From contig NZ_CP014578.1 in assembly GCF_001634365.1 (NCBI RefSeq), positions 2,666,001-2,730,000 on the forward strand: a DNA stretch of 64,000 nucleotides, read 5' to 3'. Positions 8,021-48,632 of the stretch are shown in pieces. The number at the start of each line of letters is the position of its first letter. Positions within the stretch are counted from its first letter, which is position 1. A program made the translations under genes and the position numbers. The notes beneath the pieces were generated by a model that saw only the letters and a program-made list of their open reading frames with translations, was not told the origin of the DNA and searched no databases. The DNA is from Paraburkholderia phytofirmans OLGA172 (GTDB lineage Bacteria; Pseudomonadota; Gammaproteobacteria; Burkholderiales; Burkholderiaceae).

Positions 8021-8055
8021 CTTCAGCTACAACGTTTTGAATCTACTGAATTCTT

Positions 8056-8132
8056 TGGGGTGGCTGATGGGGCTCGAACCCACGACAACAGGAATCACAA
8101 TCCTGGACTCTACCAACTGAGCTACAGCCACC
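8056..8132 (-). tRNA. tRNA-His (GTG)
   Basis: The minus strand folds into a cloverleaf. The anticodon loop TTGTGAT carries GTG, the T arm has GGTTCGAGCC, and CCA is encoded. The acceptor stem carries the extra 5' G (G-1) expected of tRNA-His, paired with C73. It lies 100 bases downstream of dusA on the same strand. Confidence 0.95.
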
Positions 8133-8200
8133 ACTGACATCTGCTTGACTTGCTAAGCAACTCATTGCTGAGAAACTTGGCTCGCCGATGAAGAAACGAG

Positions 8201-8206
8201 ATTATA
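8201..8206 (-). promoter_or_regulatory. Possible -10 element for tRNA-His
   Basis: The minus strand has a consensus TATAAT in the space between dusA and tRNA-His, about 68 bases before the mature tRNA. No clear -35 box is seen. Confidence 0.35.
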
Positions 8207-8234
8207 CGAACAAGAATTCCGTTTGCCTAGTCCT

Positions 8235-9236
8235 TTATTCAAAAATTTCGACGGGCTCACGCAGATGCTGTCTTGCCTCGTCGAAGATGCTCAGATCGCG
8301 CGCCGCCAGGCGCTTGCTATCGGACAACACGCGACGCCATCCACGTGCGCCTGCCTCACCGCGGTAGAGGCCGAGCGCATGACGCGTGATCGCACCAAGG
8401 TACGTGCCGCGCGCCATTTCAGCCGCGCAATATTCGATCAGCTTCGCCTCGACCTGCTCGCGCGTGAGCGGCGCATCCGTCGAGCCGTAGAAGCGTGCAT
8501 CGACATCGGCCAGCACATAAGGGTTGTGATAGGCCTCGCGCCCGAGCATCACGCCATCGACGTGCTGAAGATGCGCCTCCACCTCATCAAGCGTCTTGAT
8601 GCCGCCATTGATGATGATCTCCAGATGCGGGAAGTCACGCTTCAACTGATACGCGTAGTCGTATTTGAGCGGCGGAATCTCGCGGTTCTCTTTCGGGCTC
8701 AAGCCCTTGAGAATCGCATTGCGCGCGTGCACCACGAACACACTGCAGCCGGCGTTCGCGATCGTGCCGACGAAGTCGCGCACAAAGCCATATTCCTCGA
8801 CCGCATCGACGCCGATCCGGTGCTTGACCGTTACCGGTACCGACACGGCATCGCGCATTGCCTTCACGCAATCGGCGACGAGTTGCGGCTCGTTCATCAG
8901 GCAAGCGCCGAACGCACCACGCTGCACGCGCTCAGACGGGCAGCCGCAGTTCAGATTGATCTCGTCATAGCCCCATTGCTCACCGAGCCTCGCCGCACGC
9001 GCGAGATCGTCAGGCTCGCTGCCGCCGAGTTGCAAGGCAACCGGCGCTTCTTCGGGCGTAAACGCCAGATGGCGCGGCACGTCGCCGTGCAGCAGCGCGC
9101 CGGTGGTGACCATTTCGGTGTAGAGCCACGTATGGCGCGATATCACGCGATGCAGCGAGCGGCAGTGGCGATCGGTCCAGTCCATCATCGGAGCGACAGA
9201 AATGCGGCGCGGACTGGGAGTTTGAGCTGAAGACAT
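8235..9236 (-). CDS. dusA: tRNA-dihydrouridine(20/20a) synthase DusA
   Basis: This 333-residue FMN flavoenzyme reduces uridines 20 and 20a in the tRNA D loop. Landmarks are ISVAPMMDWTDRHCR at the N-terminus, the catalytic cysteine in EINLNCGCPSERVQRGAFGACLM, the VKHRIGVD motif, and FMN-phosphate binding in IIINGGIKTLDE and GVMLGREAYHNPY. The DusA-type ending ITRHALGLYRGEAGARGWRRVLS is present. It directly precedes tRNA-His on the same strand. Confidence 0.95.
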   Translation of the reverse strand: MSSAQTPSPRRISVAPMMDWTDRHCRSLHRVISRHTWLYTEMVTTGALLHGDVPRHLAFTPEEAPVALQLGGSEPDDLARAARLGEQWGYDEINLNCGCPSERVQRGAFGACLMNEPQLVADCVKAMRDAVSVPVTVKHRIGVDAVEEYGFVRDFVGTIANAGCSVFVVHARNAILKGLSPKENREIPPLKYDYAYQLKRDFPHLEIIINGGIKTLDEVEAHLQHVDGVMLGREAYHNPYVLADVDARFYGSTDAPLTREQVEAKLIEYCAAEMARGTYLGAITRHALGLYRGEAGARGWRRVLSDSKRLAARDLSIFDEARQHLREPVEIFE

Positions 9237-38410: not shown

Positions 38411-38663
38411 GGACGTCGGTCGGCGATGTGGCTCGGCTTAAGAAGCGTTTGGGTTGCGCTTAAGTTGCACTTGCGATTGCACTGGAATGACTGCTCGGGT
38501 CCGGCTCGTTCAAGTCTGAGTCCGACGGGGCGTGTGCACCGTGCCAACGAACTACTGCGAGGCATTCTAACACCCGTCTGGCGCGCCACGCGGCCCGTCA
38601 ATAGTCGCTGTGAGCCGTATGCAGTCTCGCTGCGGCGATGTTTAAGTGGCCTTTGAGAAACGC

Positions 38664-38691
38664 TTGACAGCCCTGAATCTGTCGCTATAAT
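38664..38691 (+). promoter_or_regulatory. Promoter of first tRNA-Leu
   Basis: A perfect TTGACA and a perfect TATAAT are separated by 16 bases, 24 bases before the tRNA. Confidence 0.85.
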
Positions 38692-38715
38692 GGCGTTCTT
38701 TGCTGTTCATCACCT

Positions 38716-38802
38716 GCCCAGGTGGCGAAATTGGTAGACGCACTAGGTTCAGGTCCTAGCGGTGGCAACACTGTGGAGGTTCGAGTCCTCTCTTGGGCAC
38801 CA
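38716..38802 (+). tRNA. tRNA-Leu (CAG), copy 1
   Basis: The 87-base cloverleaf has a long variable arm, anticodon CAG in loop TTCAGGT, and encoded CCA. The acceptor stem contains one G-U pair (GCCCAGG with CTTGGGC), unlike copy 2. Confidence 0.95.
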
Positions 38803-38807
38803 GATTC

Positions 38808-38853
38808 AAAAGTAAAGCCGCCTGATGTTTCACATAGGCGGCTTTACTTTTTG
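38808..38853 (+). terminator. Terminator after tRNA-Leu copy 1
   Basis: The perfect 16-base arms AAAAGTAAAGCCGCCT and its complement flank a 12-base loop and end in a T run. Confidence 0.9.
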
Positions 38854-39015
38854 TGTGAGGCTACGTGATCCGATTCTGGTTTTTTCGATCGGAATACGTG
38901 GTTGGCAGGACGGTTGGGTCGACGTGAGTTGGCAGTTGTCGAGCAGTGGAGTTTTGCTCTGCTGCATGGCACAACCGGGCGGTTGATGAAGCGATCGTTT
39001 GTTTGCATGTAGGGA

Positions 39016-39043
39016 TTGACACGCTGCATCATCACGCTAAAAT
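39016..39043 (+). promoter_or_regulatory. Promoter of second tRNA-Leu
   Basis: TTGACA and TAAAAT are 16 bases apart, 21 bases before tRNA copy 2. The copy therefore has its own promoter. Confidence 0.8.
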
Positions 39044-39064
39044 AGCGGTCTAGCTTGAAGACGT

Positions 39065-39151
39065 GCCCAGGTGGCGGAATTGGTAGACGCACTAGGTTCA
39101 GGTCCTAGCGGTGGCAACACCGTGGAGGTTCGAGTCCTCTCCTGGGCACCA
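39065..39151 (+). tRNA. tRNA-Leu (CAG), copy 2, likely integration site
   Basis: It differs from copy 1 at only a few positions (GCGGAATT instead of GCGAAATT, and compensated pairs in the variable arm and acceptor stem). Its acceptor stem is fully paired. An integrase gene begins 152 bases after its 3' end, so this 3' end is the probable attachment site of the island. Confidence 0.95.
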
Positions 39152-39185
39152 ACAGTTGTTCCGGCGCAAGCCGAAGAAGTTCGAG

Positions 39186-39220
39186 AAACCCCGTAAGATC
39201 AGCGTCTTACGGGGTTTTTT
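39186..39220 (+). terminator. Terminator after tRNA-Leu copy 2
   Basis: AAACCCCGTAAGA pairs with TCTTACGGGGTTT around a six-base loop and a T run follows. Confidence 0.88.
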
Positions 39221-39303
39221 GTTCTCTACAGATCCCTTGCGTTCCACTGACATCGACGATCTTTGCGTATACTGTTGCGTATACCAGATTCGGGGGCAAA
39301 CCC

Positions 39304-40536
39304 ATGCCCAGACGCGTCGAACCGAAGTCAGAGTTAGTGTTCCGTGCCGCCAAAGCGCGCGCCCGTTCCTACCTCCTCACGGATGGAAACGGACTCGCCC
39401 TAAGGGTCCAGCCGAACGGCACCAAAACCTGGCTGTTCCGCTATCGACGACCGAGCACAGGCAAGGAGAACTTCCACAGCCTCGGCCCCTACCCCGATAT
39501 CACGCTCACTGATGCGCGACGGTCGGCCACTACCGCACGCAATCTCGTACGCGAAGGCATCGATCCGGTTGCATATCGCCAGGCCGAGTCCATCGCCCGC
39601 AAACGCGTGGCCGAAGGCGCCTTCCATCTCGTGGCCCAGCGCTGGCTCGACTTCAAACGCAAGGAATGGGCGGACGAAACCTACCGGAAGGCGGAGTTTG
39701 TCGTGCGCGAATACCTGACTCCCGCACTCCGCAACAAGCCCATTTCGACGCTTGCCACGCCAGAGGTCAAGCCCATACTCGAAGCGATTGCAGCTCACGC
39801 GCCTAACCTCGCGACCAAGGCACGGCAGTATGTCGTTGGCATCGTGACGTACGCCGTCCAGAACGGGTTGCGCGAAGATGGCGCCGCCTTGACACTGCGC
39901 GGCGTTGTGCCTCGCCACAGGAAAGGCCACATACCTGCGATCACCAGGCCTGCGGACATCGCTCCGCTCGTTCTTGCTATCGATGCCTACAGGTCACCCA
40001 TTACCCGCGCCGCCCTCAAGCTCACCATGCTGACCGGTCTTCGCCCCGGCGTGGTTGCAGCGGTGCCGTGGACCGAGGTGAACCTCGAGACAGCTGAATG
40101 GCACGTCGCAGCCGAGCGGATGAAAATGCGGCACGATCACATCGTGCCATTGCCGAAGCAGGCCATCGCCGTCCTGAACGAGTTGCAGTCACTTACCGGT
40201 AAGGGGCACTATGTCTTTCCGTCCCCTGCCCGTCAAAAGACCCCTCATTTACATCGAGATGCATTGAGCAAAGCACTGCGAGAGATGGGCTTTCAAGGAA
40301 AGCACGCGACGCACGGTTTCCGGGGCATGCTTCGCACGGTCGGGCGAGAACGACTCGGTATGGATATCGATGTACTGGAAGCGCAACTGGCACACGCCAA
40401 ACGTGGCGATGTACAAAAGGCCTACGATAGAACTACGTTTGACGATGATCGCCGCCGGGTCATGCAGGAGTGGGCCGATTATATTGATCGCCTAAGCATG
40501 CCAACGACAGAAACGGGATCGAGCAAGCGGACCTGA
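39304..40536 (+). CDS. P4-type tyrosine integrase
   Basis: This 410-residue site-specific recombinase has the N-terminal DUF4102-like arm-binding part (LTDGNGLALRVQPNGTKTWLFRYR, LGPYPDITLTDARR) and a C-terminal catalytic domain. Visible catalytic residues are Arg247 in TGLRPGVVA, His337 and Arg340 in HGFRGMLRT, His364 in QLAHAKRGDV and the nucleophile Tyr374 in QKAYDRT. It lies directly after tRNA-Leu in the same direction, the standard P4-island layout. The set of catalytic residues is complete, so it is probably active. Confidence 0.93.
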   Translation: MPRRVEPKSELVFRAAKARARSYLLTDGNGLALRVQPNGTKTWLFRYRRPSTGKENFHSLGPYPDITLTDARRSATTARNLVREGIDPVAYRQAESIARKRVAEGAFHLVAQRWLDFKRKEWADETYRKAEFVVREYLTPALRNKPISTLATPEVKPILEAIAAHAPNLATKARQYVVGIVTYAVQNGLREDGAALTLRGVVPRHRKGHIPAITRPADIAPLVLAIDAYRSPITRAALKLTMLTGLRPGVVAAVPWTEVNLETAEWHVAAERMKMRHDHIVPLPKQAIAVLNELQSLTGKGHYVFPSPARQKTPHLHRDALSKALREMGFQGKHATHGFRGMLRTVGRERLGMDIDVLEAQLAHAKRGDVQKAYDRTTFDDDRRRVMQEWADYIDRLSMPTTETGSSKRT

Positions 40537-40885
40537 GCTGCATACCCACTCAATCGTCAATCACCGGGCTGGAGCCCCGTGGAGACGGCGGTTCCGCCAG
40601 TTCGTGTGATGACGATACCGTCAGTGATACCGAAAAATCCTGCCAGCACTTAGCGTGCTTTCTGCGGATCGCAATGGAAAGTCAATGCCCCTTCTATTTA
40701 AACTACCATGAAGATGGGGTACCTAAAGGCGATTTGTGAAGGTGATACCGTCATCGATACCGTCAGGCTCTTTCCGACACGGTCCGATCAGAACCGACCG
40801 GTGCCGCGATCTTCAGCTCCGGCCAAAGCATGCGATGGATTGCACTTACGCACTCGATCGCAGCGGACCCGCCTCTAGACGCCAC
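40537..40885. other. Intergenic gap with repeated GATACCGTCA words
   Basis: No gene is seen. The words GATACCGTCA, GTGATACC and GATACCGTCATCGATACCG recur near 40611-40640 and 40740-40770, which could be sites for a DNA-binding protein near the integrase. This is a visual observation only. Confidence 0.35.
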
Positions 40886-42202
40886 TTATAGGTAGGCGAT
40901 GCCCCGATTGAGAAGATGGGCCAATACGTCCTCGCGAGAAGATGACGGGTACGTAGCAGCCAGTGAAACCAGTGCGCACGCCACGCGCCGCGCAAGGCCG
41001 CGCGCCAAGACGCGCTGCTGAGTCGATATCTTCTCCAGTCCAGCCCGTCCGTGAATGAATGCGCTTCGCAACTCGAACAGGTTCTTATAGTCTTGCACTG
41101 CCTTGGCATCTGTAAGCGCCGCACCGATCCGTGCGGCTACCCGGTTTGTCGCCGATAATTTCGGGTGTGGGTCAGGGTTGGGACGCAGCTTACGTTTGTG
41201 ATCGCTTTCCAGGCCCAACGATGCCTCGATCGCCGTCATGTGCGCTAGCACTTCGTCGACGCCATCCGCGAGGAAAGCGCGGACCAGGAAATGCACGACC
41301 GGCGTCTCGAAGAGCGGCGTTGCGAGCGCCGCTTGCAGCTCGGTCAAATCCGATTCGGTAAAGCGCGGTAGCTCCATCTTGGCGCTATCGTGAAGCGGCA
41401 AATAGGTCGGACGTTCAAGTTCTATCTCTTCGCCCCAATGATCTTGGACGATCCAGGGCTCAAGGCTGAGACTGTCGGGGTTCGGCGGCCGTGCTGATCT
41501 GACGAAAAGATCCTCGTCAAGCGTATAAATCCACGGTATCCGGAACCCACGCCAGTCAACATCTGGCATCGTTGACCACTCCTCCCACCGAGCCAGTAGC
41601 AGGAAAAAAAGCGCGCCTTCGACAGTCGGCGGAAAGCGGCCGAGATAGGGTTCGATTTCTCCGAAATCCCGCCGGATGTCGGAGAACAGCATTGGCACGG
41701 CACGCGCTTCCGGCCTCGGATCGACGGCGCGTTCCTCCTCGACCACCAGCCAATGGAACTGTGCAAGCCGTTCCGATTCGAACGGCAATGTCGGGAAGTT
41801 GCGCCGGAGTCTCGGCGCGTTGAACAACTTCTCCAACTCCTCGGCGGTGAACTGCGCGACTCGCGCATTGCCGAATGTCATCCGTGGCAAATCATCGGCT
41901 AGATCAAGCGGACAAATGTAACGGCGCACGGTCATTCTGCGCGAATAGGCCGCGGTAAGGGTTGCTGCGGCCGTTGGCAAATCGAGCGCGAGCGCCGATT
42001 TGTTGGACGGTAGCCCGCATGGAAGGCCAAACGACCTGAGCGCATTGCTCAGCGCGAATGTTGCTTTGCCTCCACCATAACGCTGATCGAGCAGCTCACT
42101 CAACGCAACGAAGGCTGGCGCCGTTAGCAAGTTGTCCGGTCCTGGCGGCGGAATGCGCCATAGTACGGCCAAAACGTCGAGAAGCTGCTGGTCTGCTTCC
42201 AT
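40886..42202 (-). CDS. Large HEPN-domain protein, ApeA-like, putative defence RNase
   Basis: This 438-residue protein has no family match I can name for its first 300 residues (contains DVDWRGFRIPWIYTLDEDLF and LERPTYLPLHDSAKMELP). The C-terminal 130 residues look like an Apea-type HEPN domain: FLADGVDEVLAHMTAIEASLGLE, RVAARIGAAL, and the RNase motif LFELRSAFIHGR, with Arg379 and His384 spaced as Rx4H. HEPN proteins of this kind cut RNA in abortive-infection and other phage defences. The ATG at 42202 is two bases after the stop of the previous gene, so translation is coupled. It is the last of four genes. Confidence 0.7.
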   Translation of the reverse strand: MEADQQLLDVLAVLWRIPPPGPDNLLTAPAFVALSELLDQRYGGGKATFALSNALRSFGLPCGLPSNKSALALDLPTAAATLTAAYSRRMTVRRYICPLDLADDLPRMTFGNARVAQFTAEELEKLFNAPRLRRNFPTLPFESERLAQFHWLVVEEERAVDPRPEARAVPMLFSDIRRDFGEIEPYLGRFPPTVEGALFFLLLARWEEWSTMPDVDWRGFRIPWIYTLDEDLFVRSARPPNPDSLSLEPWIVQDHWGEEIELERPTYLPLHDSAKMELPRFTESDLTELQAALATPLFETPVVHFLVRAFLADGVDEVLAHMTAIEASLGLESDHKRKLRPNPDPHPKLSATNRVAARIGAALTDAKAVQDYKNLFELRSAFIHGRAGLEKISTQQRVLARGLARRVACALVSLAATYPSSSREDVLAHLLNRGIAYL

Positions 42203-42204
42203 CG

Positions 42205-42828
42205 CTAGCTGCAACCGTCGGCCACATCATTGCTGGTTTCCCAGCGCAACGGCTTCATGTAGTTATTCCTACCGGATTCCGCGATGAAATGGCGATAGGC
42301 GAAGGTGATCAGATCGCGTACCAGTTCAATAAGGCCGCCGACCGGGAGCCCGTCAAATGGATCGCCGTGAGCCATTGCGTTGCGGCGTTGCGCCAAAGTC
42401 GGTCTCGTCGTACCGATAAGCTGGCCGATTGCACTACCGCCACAGCGAGCGACAATCGGTATTTGTTCGTCGGTCAAACCGTCGGCATTCACCAGATGCT
42501 TGAGCACCGCTGCGAACGTCCGATCCTGCTTCCGGTAGTGGACTCCATAGCGGTCCATTAACGCGAGTTCCAGCGTGGTCAAGGCGACCAACTCACCAGC
42601 CTTAATTAGATCTGAGTCTATCCAGCCAAGTAAATAGAGCTTCTGCGCGCGGGCGTATTTCATGTGCACCAGATCCGGAATACGGGAGCCCATGTCAAGA
42701 TGGCTGATAAAGGCACGCCATTGGTCCGCATGGTCGAATTGAATGAAGCCGCCAGTATTCCCTGGTACCGGCCAAGGCATCAGAAGCGGGTCTCGACGCG
42801 TTGGCAGTTCGATATGCGAAACATCCAT
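42205..42828 (-). CDS. Second HEPN-motif protein of the cluster
   Basis: This 207-residue soluble protein begins MDVSHIELPTRRDPLLMPWP. Helices with LYLLGWIDSDLIKAGELVALTTLELALMDRYG and FAAVLKHLVNADGLTDEQIP precede the motif LAQRRNAMAHGDPF, giving Arg149 and His154 in Rx4H spacing, then a long helix GGLIELVRDLITFAYRHFI. The pattern is HEPN-like. GAGGG lies 11 bases before the ATG at 42828. Upstream it nearly abuts the TIGR02391-like gene, and downstream the large HEPN gene. No exact family was recognised. Confidence 0.65.
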   Translation of the reverse strand: MDVSHIELPTRRDPLLMPWPVPGNTGGFIQFDHADQWRAFISHLDMGSRIPDLVHMKYARAQKLYLLGWIDSDLIKAGELVALTTLELALMDRYGVHYRKQDRTFAAVLKHLVNADGLTDEQIPIVARCGGSAIGQLIGTTRPTLAQRRNAMAHGDPFDGLPVGGLIELVRDLITFAYRHFIAESGRNNYMKPLRWETSNDVADGCS

Positions 42829-42844
42829 GGATACGTTTCCCTCA

Positions 42845-43633
42845 TTACAGTGATGAAATATCTGCTTTCTGTGCACGATCCAGCTTGCGATGAATCAGCG
42901 ATACCATCGTAAGGATGTCCAACGCATCTTGCTCGGACATGGGCCAATTCGTCTTGGGTGCGTGGGCAAGCGGGTTGCGCACGGCTCCAAACAAGCCGAT
43001 CAGCAGATTCGCAAAGCCTTTCTGCTCGCTTTTCTCGGATTCAGTGGTGAGCGGCCCCAACGTCAGAATGGGCTGCTGGCCGGCGAACGCCTTGTTCACC
43101 AGTTCAGCACCGTCGCCGGTGAGGCCGGAGAGCAATCGAATGCGCTCCGCGACGCCCTTGCTCGCCTCGAAGACGGCATGGAAATAGTTTTCATCCAGCA
43201 GCTCGACGCGGCAGTAATTCAGCACCTCTGCATGCACGCTTCGGCTTTCCAGAGCCGCCTTAAGCCGACCGGCACGCGCGCGCGCTGCGTCCAGGGTCGT
43301 TGCCTTATCGGCATGTCCGACCCTGCCATCCTCGCGAACGTAGAATCCCGAAAACGCCAACACGACGTTGAGTTCATCGCGCCGCCAAGCGAACGTGCCA
43401 GGGTCGCGCGCGTAACTCACTGGATTCGTCGCACGGTTGATGAACATGATGAGATGGTTGCCGACCTGATGTTGGTTCTGTACGCCGGCCAAGGCATTGA
43501 ACAGCCGCTTCCATTTGGTGATGCCCGGCGATGGGTCGGCTACCTCAATCTCTTGCAACAGCCGCTCGATCTGCGTGCCGCTCAAGCCACGTTCGGTAAC
43601 GATCCAGAACGCCGTGAAGCAGGCTTTTGACAT
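42845..43633 (-). CDS. TIGR02391-like HEPN protein
   Basis: This 262-residue protein resembles the TIGR02391 (Ymh) family. The N-terminal part GLSGTQIERLLQEIEVADPSPGITKWKRLFNAL and ELNVVLAFSGFYVREDG match its conserved start, and the C-terminal part ELLDENYFHAVFEASKGVAERIRLLSGL ... FANLLIGLFGAVRNPLAHAP is the family's HEPN domain, with Arg219 and His224 in Rx4H spacing. Its start overlaps the SMEK-like gene by 89 bases in another frame; AGGAA lies just before the ATG at 43633. The role is unknown, but the family occurs often in defence islands. Confidence 0.75.
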   Translation of the reverse strand: MSKACFTAFWIVTERGLSGTQIERLLQEIEVADPSPGITKWKRLFNALAGVQNQHQVGNHLIMFINRATNPVSYARDPGTFAWRRDELNVVLAFSGFYVREDGRVGHADKATTLDAARARAGRLKAALESRSVHAEVLNYCRVELLDENYFHAVFEASKGVAERIRLLSGLTGDGAELVNKAFAGQQPILTLGPLTTESEKSEQKGFANLLIGLFGAVRNPLAHAPKTNWPMSEQDALDILTMVSLIHRKLDRAQKADISSL

Positions 43634-44441
43634 TTCCTAGTGAGCGCCATGGCGACGGACAGAAGTACTCCCCGATCCGCTCGGAACGTCCGTTAAGCCA
43701 ATCGAGCGGAACGTTGAACTCCGCAGCGATCGACTCGCACGCTGCCCCGGTCAGGTACGGATGCAGATCATGCGGCGTGGTCAGTGCTACGCGAGGGACT
43801 TTCGGGTCAACCTGAAGCGCCTGAACAATGCTTGACGGTGCCAGGTCGTGAGACGTCAGCACTCTTAAGACACGGTCGGCCGTCCCGTCGAATCTATTCA
43901 ACAACCTCAACGCCCATTTCCCGAGTTCAGCTTCGAGGCGCATCACGGCGTCCTCGATCCGGGCCTCGCTACGCGATTGCGCCAGATTGAAAAGTCCGCC
44001 CAGATCCAAGATGTTCTTCTTCGCCGTGAAATCCAGACCCGAATCGCCCAGACACTTCTCGATAGCCCGTGCCGGATAACTGTCCTCCTTGCCGCAGATC
44101 ATCACGATGTAGAGTTCGTCGGGTCTTGGTTCAAGCGACACGAATTTTGCGATCGTGTCCTTAACCTTGTTGAGGGTTCGCGTCGACGTGACCTGAACGC
44201 CCACCCTGCCGTCAAACGACAGGAGATCGATAGCCGGTTGCTTCGGATTGTCCGTGTTCAGATTCCTGAATGTCCCCCACCCGCACAGATCCGATAGCAG
44301 ATCACACATCAGGGTCTCGGCAAGCCGGTTGCTGTCGAAAAAAAACGCGCCATTTTTGATTTCGACATAGTCCCTGAATATTGACAGCGCAAGTGCCAAC
44401 CGGTCCAGCGCCGCATTTCGCGTGTTGTTTCCTGAATCCAT
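43545..44441 (-). CDS. SMEK-like domain protein, restriction-endonuclease-like fold
   Basis: This 298-residue protein has an N-terminal domain that resembles the SMEK domain: ETLMCDLLSDLCGWGTFRNLN, AIDLLSFDGRVGVQVTSTRTLNKVKDTIAKF. The D72...Q83-V-T85-S86 arrangement recalls PD-(D/E)XK nuclease folds (Asp, then a strand with QxTS), though catalytic lysine is not clear. The C-terminal part contains PHDLHPYLTGAACESIAAEFNVPLDWLNGRSERIG, which looks like a small helical DNA- or protein-binding module. It is the first gene of a four-gene minus-strand unit with three HEPN proteins. Nuclease activity is inferred, not shown. Confidence 0.65.
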   Translation of the reverse strand: MDSGNNTRNAALDRLALALSIFRDYVEIKNGAFFFDSNRLAETLMCDLLSDLCGWGTFRNLNTDNPKQPAIDLLSFDGRVGVQVTSTRTLNKVKDTIAKFVSLEPRPDELYIVMICGKEDSYPARAIEKCLGDSGLDFTAKKNILDLGGLFNLAQSRSEARIEDAVMRLEAELGKWALRLLNRFDGTADRVLRVLTSHDLAPSSIVQALQVDPKVPRVALTTPHDLHPYLTGAACESIAAEFNVPLDWLNGRSERIGEYFCPSPWRSLGNVKSLLHGVLDRYRTWLERHADRAAVARD

Positions 44442-44623
44442 GGTCACCGAGCCGACGCAGGCCGCCCATCAGCAATTGGTTGCATAATCGAATCGTCAAT
44501 GGCAATTACCAATCAGCCGCCCCCGTTATTTCGCAGAGCCATCAAGGCTTTGACGAGCTTTGCCTTCGGGCCTGAACTGAACAGTAAGGCCATCCCGGCG
44601 TTTGAAATCATATCTCCGGACCA

Positions 44624-44911
44624 TTAACCAGCGATCTCGCAAGTTCCCCACGGCGTCTGCAAGATCGCGCCGCTACCCGGCGACGCGTCGCCTACCGACC
44701 GCGCTCTGAACGTTACCACCTGTTCGTGCCCGTCCACAAACGGGCCGATCTCCAGCACTTCTAGTTCATATCCGCGGAATCTGATCCGCGAACCAGTAAA
44801 GGCACTCGTTCGCCGTTCGCGAGAAGCCCGGGTGGCATCCTGATGTCGAGAACGCGCGCCGGAAATCTCCTCGGACGCGAACATTTGATCAACTTTTGTC
44901 GGTAGAGGCAT
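44624..44911 (-). CDS. Small hypothetical protein on the island
   Basis: This frame encodes 95 residues beginning MPLPTKVDQMFASEEISGAR, with SAFTGSRIRFRGYELEVLEIGPFVDG and a Gly-rich end. No family was recognised. The ribosome site is poor. Base composition and the beta-rich middle part make it a plausible gene, but it could be a shadow. Confidence 0.35.
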   Translation of the reverse strand: MPLPTKVDQMFASEEISGARSRHQDATRASRERRTSAFTGSRIRFRGYELEVLEIGPFVDGHEQVVTFRARSVGDASPGSGAILQTPWGTCEIAG

Positions 44912-44950
44912 TGCCACATCAGTCCATTGTTCCCTACGGCATTCTAGCAA

Positions 44951-45439
44951 GCGAGCTCAGGCGTCCCCGCACTCACGTTGCGGGCCGGGCTTTCGCGCTG
45001 CGCGTCGAGCCGCGTGCCGCGTCTCGACCCTGATGGGCATCAATCCCTGACGCAACACCTGAACCCCCAAAAGACCTGTTCAGGTGGAGGCCGCTCACGG
45101 CCTCCACGATCGCGCTCGCCGCGCGGCGGCTCGTTCCGGTCAAACCCGAAGCTTCGCAGCCACCAGCCCGTGTGTTCCCGCCCAAATCTCGCGACCGTAG
45201 CCGATAGCGGCCCGGCGTCAAGGGGCGAGGGACCGTGTTGCCCGCACCCCTCCCTCGCCTTTTTCCTTGACGCCGGGCCGCTATCGGCTCCTTGGATCGC
45301 ACGGGCGCGAACTCAGGAGACTGGCGGCAGCACTGCCAACCCCGGGTTCCACCGGGACGAGCCCAACCCCTAAGGGCGGGCGGAATCTTGGAGCCCGGTC
45401 AGCCCAACACCCTTCAATTTCTTTGTTGTGGAGAACGCC
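44951..45439. other. Non-coding segment packed with hairpins
   Basis: There is no supported gene. A perfect hairpin lies at 45084-45107 (GTGGAGGCCG, loop CTCA, and its complement) and a very long one at 45199-45289. The segment directly precedes the DUF932 gene and may be a control or replication/transfer region. Confidence 0.5.
45199..45289. repeat. Long two-part inverted repeat
   Basis: The outer arms (45199-45223 and 45265-45289) are perfectly complementary over 25 bases. Inside them GGCGAGGGA (45224-45232) pairs with TCCCTCGCC (45251-45259), leaving a T5 bulge and an 18-base loop. The single-stranded form would be a 91-base hairpin, far larger than a normal terminator. Confidence 0.85.
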
Positions 45440-46273
45440 ATGCAACTCGCTTCCTCTTTCCATTACGGCTCCCCGATGCTTCGCGCCGATGTGCCCCTGT
45501 CGGATGACCAGATCCACCGCGTTGCCCCGTCCATCTTCGCGGACGGCAAGCACGAAAGCCGTTCGGAACGCTACACCTACATTCCAACGATCGATGTGCT
45601 GCGCGGCCTGCGCAACGAAGGCTTCCAGCCGTTCATGGTCTGTCAGACACGCGTGCGCGATCAGGGCAAGCGCGAATACACGAAACACATGCTCCGGCTT
45701 CGCCACGCCGACCAGATCAACGGCGATGAAGCTAACGAAATAGTGCTCCTCAATTCGCACGATGGCACGAGTAGCTATCAGATGCTGGCGGGCGTGCTGC
45801 GCTTCGTCTGCCAGAACGGCATGGTGGCAGGCGACAACGTGGCCGATATCCGCGTACATCATAAAGGCAACATCGTTCAGAACGTCATCAATGGCGCATT
45901 CGACGTGCTCGACGGTTTCGACCTGATCCGCGAGCAGAAGGACGGCATGCGCGACGTGACGCTCGACCGCGACGAACAGCACGCGTTTGCCCGCTCCGCG
46001 CTCGCGCTGCGATATGACCCGACCGATGCCGAGGCACAGGCCCCCATCACCGAAAGCCAGTTACTCGCCCCGCGTCGCTTCGAGGATCGCCGGGACGACC
46101 TGTGGACGGTCTTTAACCGCGTGCAGGAAAACCTCACGAAGGGCGGCCTGCACGGGCGCTCGCGCACGGGCCGCGCGATGTCCACGCGCCCAATTACCGG
46201 TATCGACCAGAACGTAAAGCTCAACCGCGCGCTCTGGATGCTCGCGGACGCGATGCGCCAGATCAAGGCGTAA
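45440..46273 (+). CDS. DUF932 protein, plasmid/ICE-type
   Basis: This 277-residue protein is a DUF932 (PF06067-type) member: YTYIPTIDVLRGLRNEGFQPFMVCQTRVRD, HMLRLRHADQINGDEANEIVLLNSHDGTSSYQMLAGVLRFVCQNGMV and GGLHGRSRTGRAMSTRPITGIDQNVKLNRALW. The family occurs on plasmids and ICEs and has no proven function. GTGGAG lies before the ATG at 45440. It is followed by the ParB-like gene. Confidence 0.88.
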   Translation: MQLASSFHYGSPMLRADVPLSDDQIHRVAPSIFADGKHESRSERYTYIPTIDVLRGLRNEGFQPFMVCQTRVRDQGKREYTKHMLRLRHADQINGDEANEIVLLNSHDGTSSYQMLAGVLRFVCQNGMVAGDNVADIRVHHKGNIVQNVINGAFDVLDGFDLIREQKDGMRDVTLDRDEQHAFARSALALRYDPTDAEAQAPITESQLLAPRRFEDRRDDLWTVFNRVQENLTKGGLHGRSRTGRAMSTRPITGIDQNVKLNRALWMLADAMRQIKA

Positions 46274-46401
46274 GCGCACAGGGGCGGCGCTCCGCCGCCT
46301 CGTTTCTTCCATGTCGATTAGGAATCCTATCCGGGTCGATTCCTTATCGGTTTCAGCAGTGCAGCGGCCCGGAACTTTTTCTTAACTTTCTGGAGTCAAT
46401 C

Positions 46402-48585
46402 ATGCAAGCCCAAGTCGAAACCACCACGGCAGACACTGCCGAAACAGCCTCCCTGCTCGAAACCAGCTTTGGTAACGAGCAACCTATCGTGACGGTGCCC
46501 TATTCCAGTCTTCGGCGTTCGCCGCTTAACGCGCGCACCGAGCCACTGTCCGGCATTCCCGGCCTCGCCGCCAACATACGCGCGAAGGGGCTGCTGCAAA
46601 ATCTCGTCGTCCACGAAATTAAGGGATCGCGTGGCAAGCAGCGCCGGCACGGCGTTTGCGCGGGCCAGCGCCGTGAGGCCGCGCTCGACCTGCTATATGA
46701 ACAGAAGCACATCACCGCCGACTATCCGGTGCCCGTTCGGATCGTCAGTGAAGGCGAAGCCCTTGCCAATTCGCTGATCGAGAACAGCGAGCGCGAGGGA
46801 CTCGACCCGTTCGACGTGCTGCGCTCGTACCGGATGCTGGCCGAGGAAGGTCGCAGCGTCGATTACATCGCCGCGCTCTTTTCCGCCTCGCCGCTCACGG
46901 TCAAACGGCGCATGAAGCTTGCCAACGTATCGCCCAAGCTGCTCGCCCTGCTGCGCGAGGATGCTATTACCCTCGACCAGCTTGCGGCGCTCGCACTAGC
47001 CGACGATCCTGAAACGCAGGAGCGCATCTGGTTTGATGCACTGAACGACTGGCAGCGCGCACCGCAATATCTGCGGCAAGCGATCACACGGTCAGAAGTC
47101 GACGCGAGCCGCAGTCGTCTGGTGCGCTTCGTCGGACTCACGGCCTACGACGCAGCGGGCGGTTTTGTGCGGCGTGACCTGTTCAGCGACGCCGAAAACG
47201 CCGGATTCATTGCCGACGCTGAACTGTTGCAGCGACTAGCGGGCGAGAAACTCGAAGCCGTTGCCGAGGAAGTCCGCGCCGAAGGGTGGAACTGGACGGA
47301 GACTCGGATCGAGCGTGACGTGCTCGAACTGAACCGCTACGACAAGCTCGATCCGCTCAACCGCCCGTATACCGAGGACGAGCAGCGCGAAATGGATGCA
47401 CTGACGGCGCGGCAGGACGAACTCGCGGACCAGTACGATGCGCTCTCGGAAAATGACGAAAACGCCTACGACGAAGGCGAACGGATCGAGGCCGACCTAA
47501 ACGCAGTCACTGCCACGATTCAGGCACTGGAAATCCGCACACAGGCGTGGGACGCGCAGCAGATGGCCGAAGCGGGGGCGTTCGTGATCCTCGACCCGCA
47601 AGGCAATCTGATCATCGAACGCGGGCTGGTGCGCCGTGACAGCGAAGCCGGACACGACGCAGGCGCGGCAACGGTCGGACAAGCTGTCGCGGCGCTCAAG
47701 GAGGCAAACCGAAAGGTCAAGCCGGTTCACAGCGCGAAGCTCTGCCAGCGTCTGAGCGCTCATCGCACCGCTGCCATCCACGCGGAACTGATCGCACAGC
47801 CGTCCGTTGCCCTCGCCGCCCTGCTGTTCCGGCTCGCGCCGATCGCCTTCCCCGAACGATATGGCGTCGGGTCGAGCCGGGACTACCTCGAACTCAACGC
47901 CAGCAGCAACCACGATGCCCTGCTCAAGGCCGCTGACGATCTGCCCGCCAGCCCCGCATGGAGCATCATCGACGCGCAACGCCAGCAGTGGCTCGCGACC
48001 CTCCCCCGGAATCTGGCTGATCTGCTGCCGTGGCTGACCGAGCAAGACCCCGGCACGACGCTGCTCGACCTGCTCGCGTTCTGCACCGGCAGCCTGCTTG
48101 ACGGAGTAACCGGCACAGAAGGGCCGCAGGCCATTAACGCCCTGAGCAACGTGCTGCAGCTCGACATGACCCGGTACTGGACGCCGACCCGCGCCTCATA
48201 TTTCGATCATGTCAGCAAGGCGCGCATCGTGGACGTCGCGATGCAGGCAGTTTCGCCCAAGATCGCCCTCGACCTCAGCAAGATGAAGAAGGGCGATGCG
48301 TCTGCTGCTGCGGAGATGCGGCTCGCAAAATCGGCATGGCTCCCGGAAATCCTCACCGATCGGGAAGCTCCGCCCATCCATGCCCTCGGCGTAATGACGG
48401 CCCAGGATGACGAGACTGACGAGGACGATCCGGAGAACCCACAGGAAGCCAGCGCAGGCGCCGCCGACGCGCAGGAAACGGACTCTGCGACCGACGCCGC
48501 ACAGACGGGCGGCAGCTTCCCGGCATGGCCCTTCCCGACCGCCGCCAGCGTGGCGAATACGGAAGTGATGCAGCACACCGCGTAA
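46402..48585 (+). CDS. ParB/RepB/Spo0J-family protein, long plasmid type
   Basis: This 727-residue protein has an N-terminal ParB-like domain: VPYSSLRRSPLNARTEP, IRAKGLLQNLVV, GQRREAALDLL and ANSLIENSEREGLDPFDVLRSYRML. An HTH follows (SVDYIAALFSASPLTVKRRMKLANVSPKLLALLREDAITLDQLAALAL). The remaining 450 residues, with the acidic tail QDDETDEDDPENPQE, are typical of the long ParB proteins on ICEs and plasmids. No parA is adjacent in the same direction; an StbB-type ATPase lies on the other strand. Its role may be segregation or transcription control. Confidence 0.87.
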   Translation: MQAQVETTTADTAETASLLETSFGNEQPIVTVPYSSLRRSPLNARTEPLSGIPGLAANIRAKGLLQNLVVHEIKGSRGKQRRHGVCAGQRREAALDLLYEQKHITADYPVPVRIVSEGEALANSLIENSEREGLDPFDVLRSYRMLAEEGRSVDYIAALFSASPLTVKRRMKLANVSPKLLALLREDAITLDQLAALALADDPETQERIWFDALNDWQRAPQYLRQAITRSEVDASRSRLVRFVGLTAYDAAGGFVRRDLFSDAENAGFIADAELLQRLAGEKLEAVAEEVRAEGWNWTETRIERDVLELNRYDKLDPLNRPYTEDEQREMDALTARQDELADQYDALSENDENAYDEGERIEADLNAVTATIQALEIRTQAWDAQQMAEAGAFVILDPQGNLIIERGLVRRDSEAGHDAGAATVGQAVAALKEANRKVKPVHSAKLCQRLSAHRTAAIHAELIAQPSVALAALLFRLAPIAFPERYGVGSSRDYLELNASSNHDALLKAADDLPASPAWSIIDAQRQQWLATLPRNLADLLPWLTEQDPGTTLLDLLAFCTGSLLDGVTGTEGPQAINALSNVLQLDMTRYWTPTRASYFDHVSKARIVDVAMQAVSPKIALDLSKMKKGDASAAAEMRLAKSAWLPEILTDREAPPIHALGVMTAQDDETDEDDPENPQEASAGAADAQETDSATDAAQTGGSFPAWPFPTAASVANTEVMQHTA

Positions 48586-48632
48586 GCAACCTACTCCCCC
48601 GCCCGCGCTCACGCGCAGGCGGGGCTTATAGC

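What the first reader, a model, noticed from the sequence alone, without database searches (positions are those of the whole stretch)
40886..44441. Four-gene SMEK plus triple-HEPN cluster, candidate undescribed defence system
Seen: four adjacent minus-strand genes with overlaps or tiny gaps encode a SMEK-like protein and three unrelated proteins that each carry an Rx4H HEPN motif (Arg219/His224, Arg149/His154, Arg379/His384). Known: HEPN domains are RNases of many abortive-infection and toxin systems, and SMEK and TIGR02391 domains are often near defence genes. Inferred: a nuclease-like sensor paired with several HEPN effectors on a mobile island would be an unusual design. I know of no described system with this exact set.
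Basis: partly seen in the sequence, partly recalled or inferred. Interest (0 to 1): 0.82.

Follow-up and report, generated by a model that had tools for sequence, protein, structure and literature searches.

The report
Shuffled nuclease and triple-HEPN defence locus
A block of four genes on a mobile DNA island in a bacterium looks like a patchwork anti-virus locus: one DNA-cutting-type protein plus three probable RNA-cutting proteins, put together from pieces that occur in other combinations elsewhere.

Summary
In detail: four same-strand genes encode a SMEK (Mrr-like, PD-(D/E)XK type) protein (P1) and three unrelated HEPN proteins (P2-P4). Rx4H alone is chance-level; its invariance in homologues and the HEPN-like models of P3 and P4 carry the claim. 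It is not wholly undescribed: P2 is an 86% identical relative of component B of PD-lambda-3, an abortive-infection system of E. coli; component A is absent. The four-gene set was seen in no other genome searched, but its blocks recur: P2-P3 behind a YhcG nuclease in Caballeronia and a same-genus relative; P3 followed by P4, mostly with a gene between, in Alphaproteobacteria and others; P2 beside a PD-(D/E)XK-type gene in 11 of 26 loci. Two junctions look recombined: P1 runs into a 5'-shortened P2, and P3 ends in a probable remnant of a lost middle gene. Best reading: a mosaic abortive-infection locus beside an integrase at tRNA-Leu, with HEPN RNases as killers. One four-part machine is possible but unsupported. 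P3 and P4 belong to widespread families (1,148 and at least 670 protein clusters) that gave no Pfam or PADLOC match.

The parts
43545..44447 (-). P1: SMEK-domain protein (PD-(D/E)XK / Mrr-like nuclease domain at residues ~20-155, then ~145 aa without family match); likely start ATG 44441
   Evidence: Pfam SMEK_N 3.6e-31; PDB 26bh Mrr domain 1.4e-11; D74, Q85, T87, K94 invariant in 10 of 10 rows, window included
42845..43633 (-). P2: TIGR02391 / Hypoth_Ymh HEPN protein, PD-Lambda-3_B relative; conserved N-terminal ~10-20 aa of homologues missing
   Evidence: PADLOC PD-Lambda-3_B 2e-162; Pfam PF09509 1.9e-44; 86% to the E. coli protein over 244 aa; R219/N220/H224 in 18 of 18 rows
42205..42828 (-). 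P3: 207-aa HEPN protein (RRNAMAHGDPF motif); ORF start 42876 less likely
40886..42214 (-). P4: ~438-aa protein, N-terminal alpha/beta part plus C-terminal HEPN domain (about 296-426); likely start ATG 42202
43545..43633 (-). P1/P2 junction: 89-bp overlap; DNA homology to other P2 genes starts within it, P1 runs on in another frame
42205..42277 (-). Probable scar of a lost middle gene (NovX) forming the C-terminal tail of P3 (NNYMKPLRWETSNDVADGCS; compare MKPFRW at the NovX start)
   Evidence: similar tails in P0127, P0128, P0129, P0131
39304..40536 (+). Tyrosine integrase of the island
   Evidence: Pfam Arm-DNA-bind_3, Phage_int_M, Phage_integrase
39065..39151 (+). tRNA-Leu(CAG), presumed integration site; a second copy lies at 38716-38802
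   Evidence: ARAGORN, Rfam
45428..46273 (+). DUF932 protein of the island backbone, DNA shared with other islands that carry P2
   Evidence: Pfam; DNA similarity to L062 and L092
46402..48585 (+). ParB-like protein of the island backbone (Pfam match below the curated cut-off)

Best explanation
A mosaic, probably abortive-infection type anti-phage locus in the cargo slot between the integrase and the DUF932/ParB backbone of a tRNA-Leu island. P1 (SMEK nuclease) and P2 (TIGR02391 HEPN) would work like PD-lambda-3: a PD-(D/E)XK protein next to a HEPN protein, here with a different nuclease. P3 is a hinge HEPN gene that elsewhere travels with P2 or with P4. P4 carries a large N-terminal part (possible sensor) and a C-terminal HEPN domain. 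Proposed working: the HEPN proteins are held inactive until phage infection is sensed by P1 and/or the N-terminal part of P4; they then cut RNA and stop translation, so the infected cell releases no phage. Shown here: gene content, HEPN motif invariance, HEPN-like folds of P3 and P4, recurring sub-blocks, recombined-looking junctions. Inferred: RNase activity, trigger, who binds whom, abortive outcome.
For: P2 is a close PD-Lambda-3_B relative, and PD-lambda-3 is called an abortive infection system. P2 lies next to a PD-(D/E)XK-type gene in 11 of 26 loci: EcA and/or Mrr in 4, YhcG in 4, Shedu in 3. DNA 43579-42277 is 80% identical to Caballeronia L006 straight across P2-P3. P3 is followed by P4 in 4 of 25 P3 loci (directly in L004, after NovX in L003, L008, L025) and preceded by P2 in 4 of 25. 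Motifs and folds. Integrase, tRNA-Leu, DUF932, ParB context.
Confidence: 0.5

Rival explanations
1. One integrated four-component system: P1 senses or cuts phage DNA and activates a complex of three different HEPN RNases.
For: Four tightly packed same-strand genes; P2-P3 and P3-P4 neighbourhood each recur elsewhere.
Against: The full set was seen only here (P1; P4); each block occurs without the others; the P1-P2 junction looks recombined and removes the P2 start.
Confidence: 0.15
2. Toxin-antitoxin or addiction modules of the island: HEPN toxins held by their neighbours, with phage defence secondary.
For: P2 relatives lie near HipA and RelE genes; leading structural matches include HepT toxins.
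Against: No MNT antitoxin or other antitoxin family matched in the four proteins.
Confidence: 0.15
3. A decaying cargo site: remnants of two defence modules left after recombination, with P1-P2 no longer functional.
For: P2 N-terminus shortened and overlapped by P1; probable NovX remnant; broken or truncated P2 copies in L007, L023 and L067; P4 remnant in G846.
Against: All four ORFs are intact with the motif residues kept; the P3 tail after the presumed NovX loss recurs in P0127, P0128, P0129 and P0131, so that form persists.
Confidence: 0.2

Closest known systems
PD-lambda-3 (E. coli, Vassallo et al. 2022; PADLOC PD-Lambda-3_A/B)
   Same: P2 is an 86% identical relative of component B; a nuclease-type gene precedes it
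   Different: Component A (159 aa, read here as PD-(D/E)XK from its PD...EFK motif) is replaced by a SMEK protein with no BLASTP similarity to it; two further HEPN genes follow
SMEK/Mrr-APAZ short Argonaute systems
   Same: Same SMEK/Mrr nuclease domain (PADLOC Aga_REase models, PDB 26bh)
   Different: P1 has no APAZ part matched and no Argonaute gene is among the four
HEPN toxins (HepT, AbiV) and HEPN families of Anantharaman et al. 2013
   Same: HEPN-like fold and Rx4H; Ymh is listed there as a HEPN family found in operons with restriction-modification genes
   Different: No MNT antitoxin matched; the paper lists AbiV without Rx4H; three HEPN genes in one block
YhcG-P2-P3 loci of Caballeronia and relatives (L006, L061; found here)
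   Same: P2-P3 as one block behind a nuclease gene after an integrase
   Different: YhcG instead of SMEK; no P4
P3-NovX-P4 loci (L003, L025; found here)
   Same: P3 and P4 homologues, same order
   Different: A middle gene NovX, of which the window keeps only a probable remnant

Membership tests
PD-lambda-3 | Component B (TIGR02391 HEPN) | tested here: met
   PADLOC PD-Lambda-3_B 2e-162
PD-lambda-3 | Component A next to B | tested here: not met
   No PD-Lambda-3_A match in the four proteins at E up to 1; P1 against E. coli A: best BLASTP E 8.9
PD-lambda-3 | Abortive protection against phage lambda | not testable with these tools
   needs a plaque assay
Short pAgo with SMEK/Mrr-APAZ partner | SMEK nuclease domain | tested here: met
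Short pAgo with SMEK/Mrr-APAZ partner | APAZ domain in the same protein and a pAgo gene beside it | tested here: not met
   PADLOC best match of P1 stops at profile position 173 of 463; no Argonaute family match in P1-P4
HEPN superfamily (P2) | Family recognised as HEPN, Rx4H kept | tested here: met
   PF09509/TIGR02391; 18 of 18 rows; Ymh listed as HEPN in PMC3710099; P2 itself was not folded
HEPN superfamily (P3) | HEPN fold and Rx4H | tested here: met
HEPN superfamily (P4) | HEPN fold and Rx4H | tested here: met
HepT-MntA toxin-antitoxin | MNT nucleotidyltransferase partner | tested here: not met
   No nucleotidyltransferase match in the four proteins
HEPN superfamily (P2-P4) | Metal-independent RNase activity | not testable with these tools
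   needs biochemistry

The most novel reading that the evidence does not exclude
P3 is a general-purpose HEPN partner that is passed between defence modules, and here it ties a SMEK nuclease-HEPN pair and the sensor-like P4 into one composite immune complex with three different HEPN RNases, each cutting a different RNA.
Probability: 0.13. Interest if true: 0.75.

Novelty: new variant of a known kind. Interest (0 to 1): 0.45.

Why it matters
It gives genomic context to PD-lambda-3_B: the TIGR02391 HEPN protein occurs with changing nuclease-type partners (EcA, YhcG, Shedu, SMEK), which suggests the HEPN protein is the constant working part. It also brings out two widespread HEPN families (P3, P4), sometimes neighbours, for which the Pfam and PADLOC copies used here gave no match, as candidates for experimental testing.

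Tried and rejected
Rx4H as evidence by itself: rejected as chance-level. P1 as an Argonaute partner: rejected, no APAZ match and no Argonaute match among the four. Filing the locus as PD-lambda-3: rejected, component A absent. Island right end: the 23-bp tRNA-Leu 3' end occurs only at the two tRNA-Leu genes (whole genome, up to 2 mismatches, window), so no attR was found. Promoter and terminator scans: fewer sites than in shuffles. Rfam on 38500-48600: only the two tRNAs. IMG/VR scans with single proteins: P1, P3 and P4 gave no confirmed relative, P2 gave 5. Foldseek alone gave no significant match for P3 or P4. P3 profile against the genes upstream of other P4 homologues: no match. Paper searches (open-licence PMC only): 'PD-lambda-3' 2 papers; TIGR02391 none; HEPN with SMEK none; HEPN with PD-lambda-3 one; Kordia with Argonaute, listing only; broad HEPN search, 179 papers of which 15 listed (listing only); RiboL-PSP-HEPN / Hypoth_ymh / Apea-like HEPN one unrelated paper; SMEK domain or defence (listing).
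Full report
Observation. Four minus-strand ORFs lie at 40886-44447. P1 and P2 overlap by 89 bp. P3 most likely starts at 42828, where its homologues start, and P4 at 42202, just past the P3 stop. P1 is a SMEK-domain protein. P2 is TIGR02391/Hypoth_Ymh. P3 and P4 have no Pfam, NCBIfam, PHROG or PADLOC match at E up to 1. The Rx4H motif is common by chance, but the arginine and histidine are invariant in the rows aligned, window included: 18 of 18 for P2, 46 of 46 for P3, 50 of 50 for P4. The P2 rows are a choice of intact copies: broken copies, near duplicates and short matches were left out. The P3 rows use 35 and the P4 rows 37 of the 120 proteins listed for each. A plain text pattern over all 120 listed finds RNxxxH or RSxxxH in 119 for P3 and LRxxxxHGR in 115 for P4 (the misses were not followed up one by one).

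P2 and PD-lambda-3. P2 matches PADLOC PD-Lambda-3_B at 2e-162 and is 86% identical over 244 aa to the protein of E. coli H15, where it follows PD-Lambda-3_A (2.3e-100) and precedes an Mrr-type gene. Component A carries a PD...EFK motif (my reading), and a review lists PD-lambda-3 under PD(D/E)XK nucleases (PMC10952713, one passage). PD-lambda-3 is called an abortive infection system (PMC13190303, passages). Of the original screen (PMC9519451) I saw passages and section 7; the find counted no 'lambda-3' in its main text. P1 is not similar to component A. So P1-P2 resembles PD-lambda-3 but is not a member.

P2 partners. Over 26 distinct P2 loci apart from the window (L002, L005, L023, L060-L077, L092-L096; L006 and L007 are the same places as L062 and L074), I found a PD-(D/E)XK-type gene next to P2 in 11: EcA and/or Mrr in L002, L005, L060, L067; YhcG in L023, L061, L062, L063; Shedu in L069, L071, L072. 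Some are near copies of one element; Pfam was run on one or two members of each kind and the rest were assigned by BLAST or cluster; many neighbours in the other 15 loci were not scanned. Among those 15, HipA (L064), RelE (L094; L092 and L093 by cluster) and AAA_13 (L096) lie near P2. In the family search P2 has a match in 33 of 398 genomes, the window's own included, many of them weak or partial. Five IMG/VR contigs carry it, and 9 of 50,697 phage records hold a match, all below 60% identity.

P3 partners. Over 25 P3 loci (L003, L004, L006-L027, L061): P2 precedes in 4 (L006 and L061 intact; L007 and L023 with truncated or broken P2); P4 follows in 4 (directly in L004; after NovX in L003, L008 and L025; cut by the contig end in L008); a member of the YAcAr (SLOG) gene cluster lies upstream in 12, in alphaproteobacterial genomes and mostly among strawberry-notch and toprim genes (with an ORF between in L016 and L021; Pfam run on one member; ORFs called by a simple script); YhcG in 1 (L024); others in 4. 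A further P3 on a Sphingobium plasmid lies two genes after an 'abortive infection family protein'. In 19 genomes that hold a P3 locus, 4 hold a P4 homologue; in one of them (L025) it stands in the P3 locus, in the other three elsewhere. Labrys proteins P0157 and P0089 bear neighbouring locus tags, and P0129/P0011 share a longest-contig length, which suggests more P3-P4 pairs. On plasmids P3 has matches in 7 records and P4 in 28.

P4 partners. Over 13 P4 loci without P3 (L078-L086, L102-L104, L111), four have an upstream gene of about 200 aa with an ECK motif that reads like PD-(D/E)XK (L080, L082, L102, L103; motif reading only; L080 and L082 gave no supporting Pfam match). A Ti plasmid (NC_002377) has a TIR-domain gene directly upstream. 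In L111 a P4 homologue lies downstream of a YAcAr gene, in the type of site that P3 uses elsewhere.

How the window's set arose. DNA from 43579 to 42277 matches Caballeronia L006 at 80% over 1305 bp straight across P2-P3, and stops where the P3 tail begins. The P3 tail reads NNYMKPLRWETSNDVADGCS; in Novosphingobium the gene between P3 and P4 (NovX) starts MKPFRW, so the tail looks like the remnant of a lost NovX. P0127, P0128, P0129 and P0131 end alike, so this form is not unique to the window; but P3 directly before P4 also exists without such a tail (L004). At the other end P2 homology begins around residue 8-13, its conserved start is missing, and P1 runs on into P2 in another frame. The SMEK gene thus seems to have been joined onto P2 by recombination.

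Conservation of the full set. P1 beyond its SMEK domain has hardly any relative: besides itself, one 193-aa protein 53% identical over 63% and three SMEK-domain matches, and 1 of 368 other class genomes, by the SMEK part only; on plasmids 22 records match, none over 80% of P1. P4 is found in 1 of 398 family genomes (its own), 1 of 369 class genomes (its own), and in 2 of 144 genus genomes: its own and a 31-residue remnant. The remnant in G846 lies behind 265 bp that are 94% identical to the stretch after the window's integrase. In 249 genomes of the order of G779, the genome of L020 (Rhizobium rhizogenes), P4 has 2 matches, one of them partial. The four-gene order was seen nowhere else, though two contigs that may bear on it were not fetched.

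Context. The island has an integrase behind tRNA-Leu(CAG), DUF932, ParB-like, ParA-like and Tn3 transposase genes. Loci L062 and L092, which carry P2, share DUF932 DNA with it at 71-72%, so P2 blocks sit in a related kind of island.

Working model. HEPN families with Rx4H are predicted metal-independent RNases, and Ymh HEPN proteins occur with restriction-modification operons (PMC3710099, passages). The most economical reading is a two-layer locus: nuclease-type proteins that meet DNA, and HEPN RNases that shut the cell down. RNase activity, trigger and complex formation are inferred.

Novelty. No described system with all four proteins was found in PADLOC or in the paper searches listed under Tried and rejected; these cover open-licence PMC papers only. 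I call it a new variant of a known kind: HEPN-plus-nuclease defence. The newest element is the P3/P4 pair of widespread HEPN families.

Noticed in passing
L006 4877-7612, L061 5935-8664: YhcG-P2-P3 three-gene block behind an integrase in Caballeronia and a relative of the window's genus; may be a system of its own.
   Followed up: partly
L009-L012, L014-L016, L018-L021, L027: P3 homologues lie behind a YAcAr (SLOG) gene in alphaproteobacterial loci, mostly with strawberry-notch helicase and toprim genes: a possible SLOG-HEPN pair.
   Followed up: partly
L080 3382-5311, L082 3388-5311, L102 5584-7553, L103 7511-9480: P4 homologues preceded by a ~200-aa gene with an ECK motif reading like PD-(D/E)XK.
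   Followed up: partly
L078 2859-5308: P4 homologue behind a TIR-domain gene on a Ti plasmid (NC_002377), with an ABC-three-component system and a TIGR02391 gene nearby.
   Followed up: no
L069 7716-10013: TIGR02391 HEPN gene followed by a Shedu (SduA) gene; the same cluster occurs in L071 and L072.
   Followed up: no
L109 7180-7512: Related island in the same genus keeps only the 3' end of P4 behind the integrase-side DNA, near a contig end: cargo turnover at this site.
   Followed up: partly
window 38716-38802 and 39065-39151: Two tRNA-Leu(CAG) genes 84 of 87 bases alike, 262 bp apart; no third copy of the 23-bp 3' end in the genome (up to 2 mismatches).
   Followed up: partly
L059 2270-3418 and window 8050-9197: 94% identical DNA over 1149 bp, starting at the tRNA-His gene of the window, in another genome's locus fetched for a weak TIGR02391 match.
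   Followed up: no
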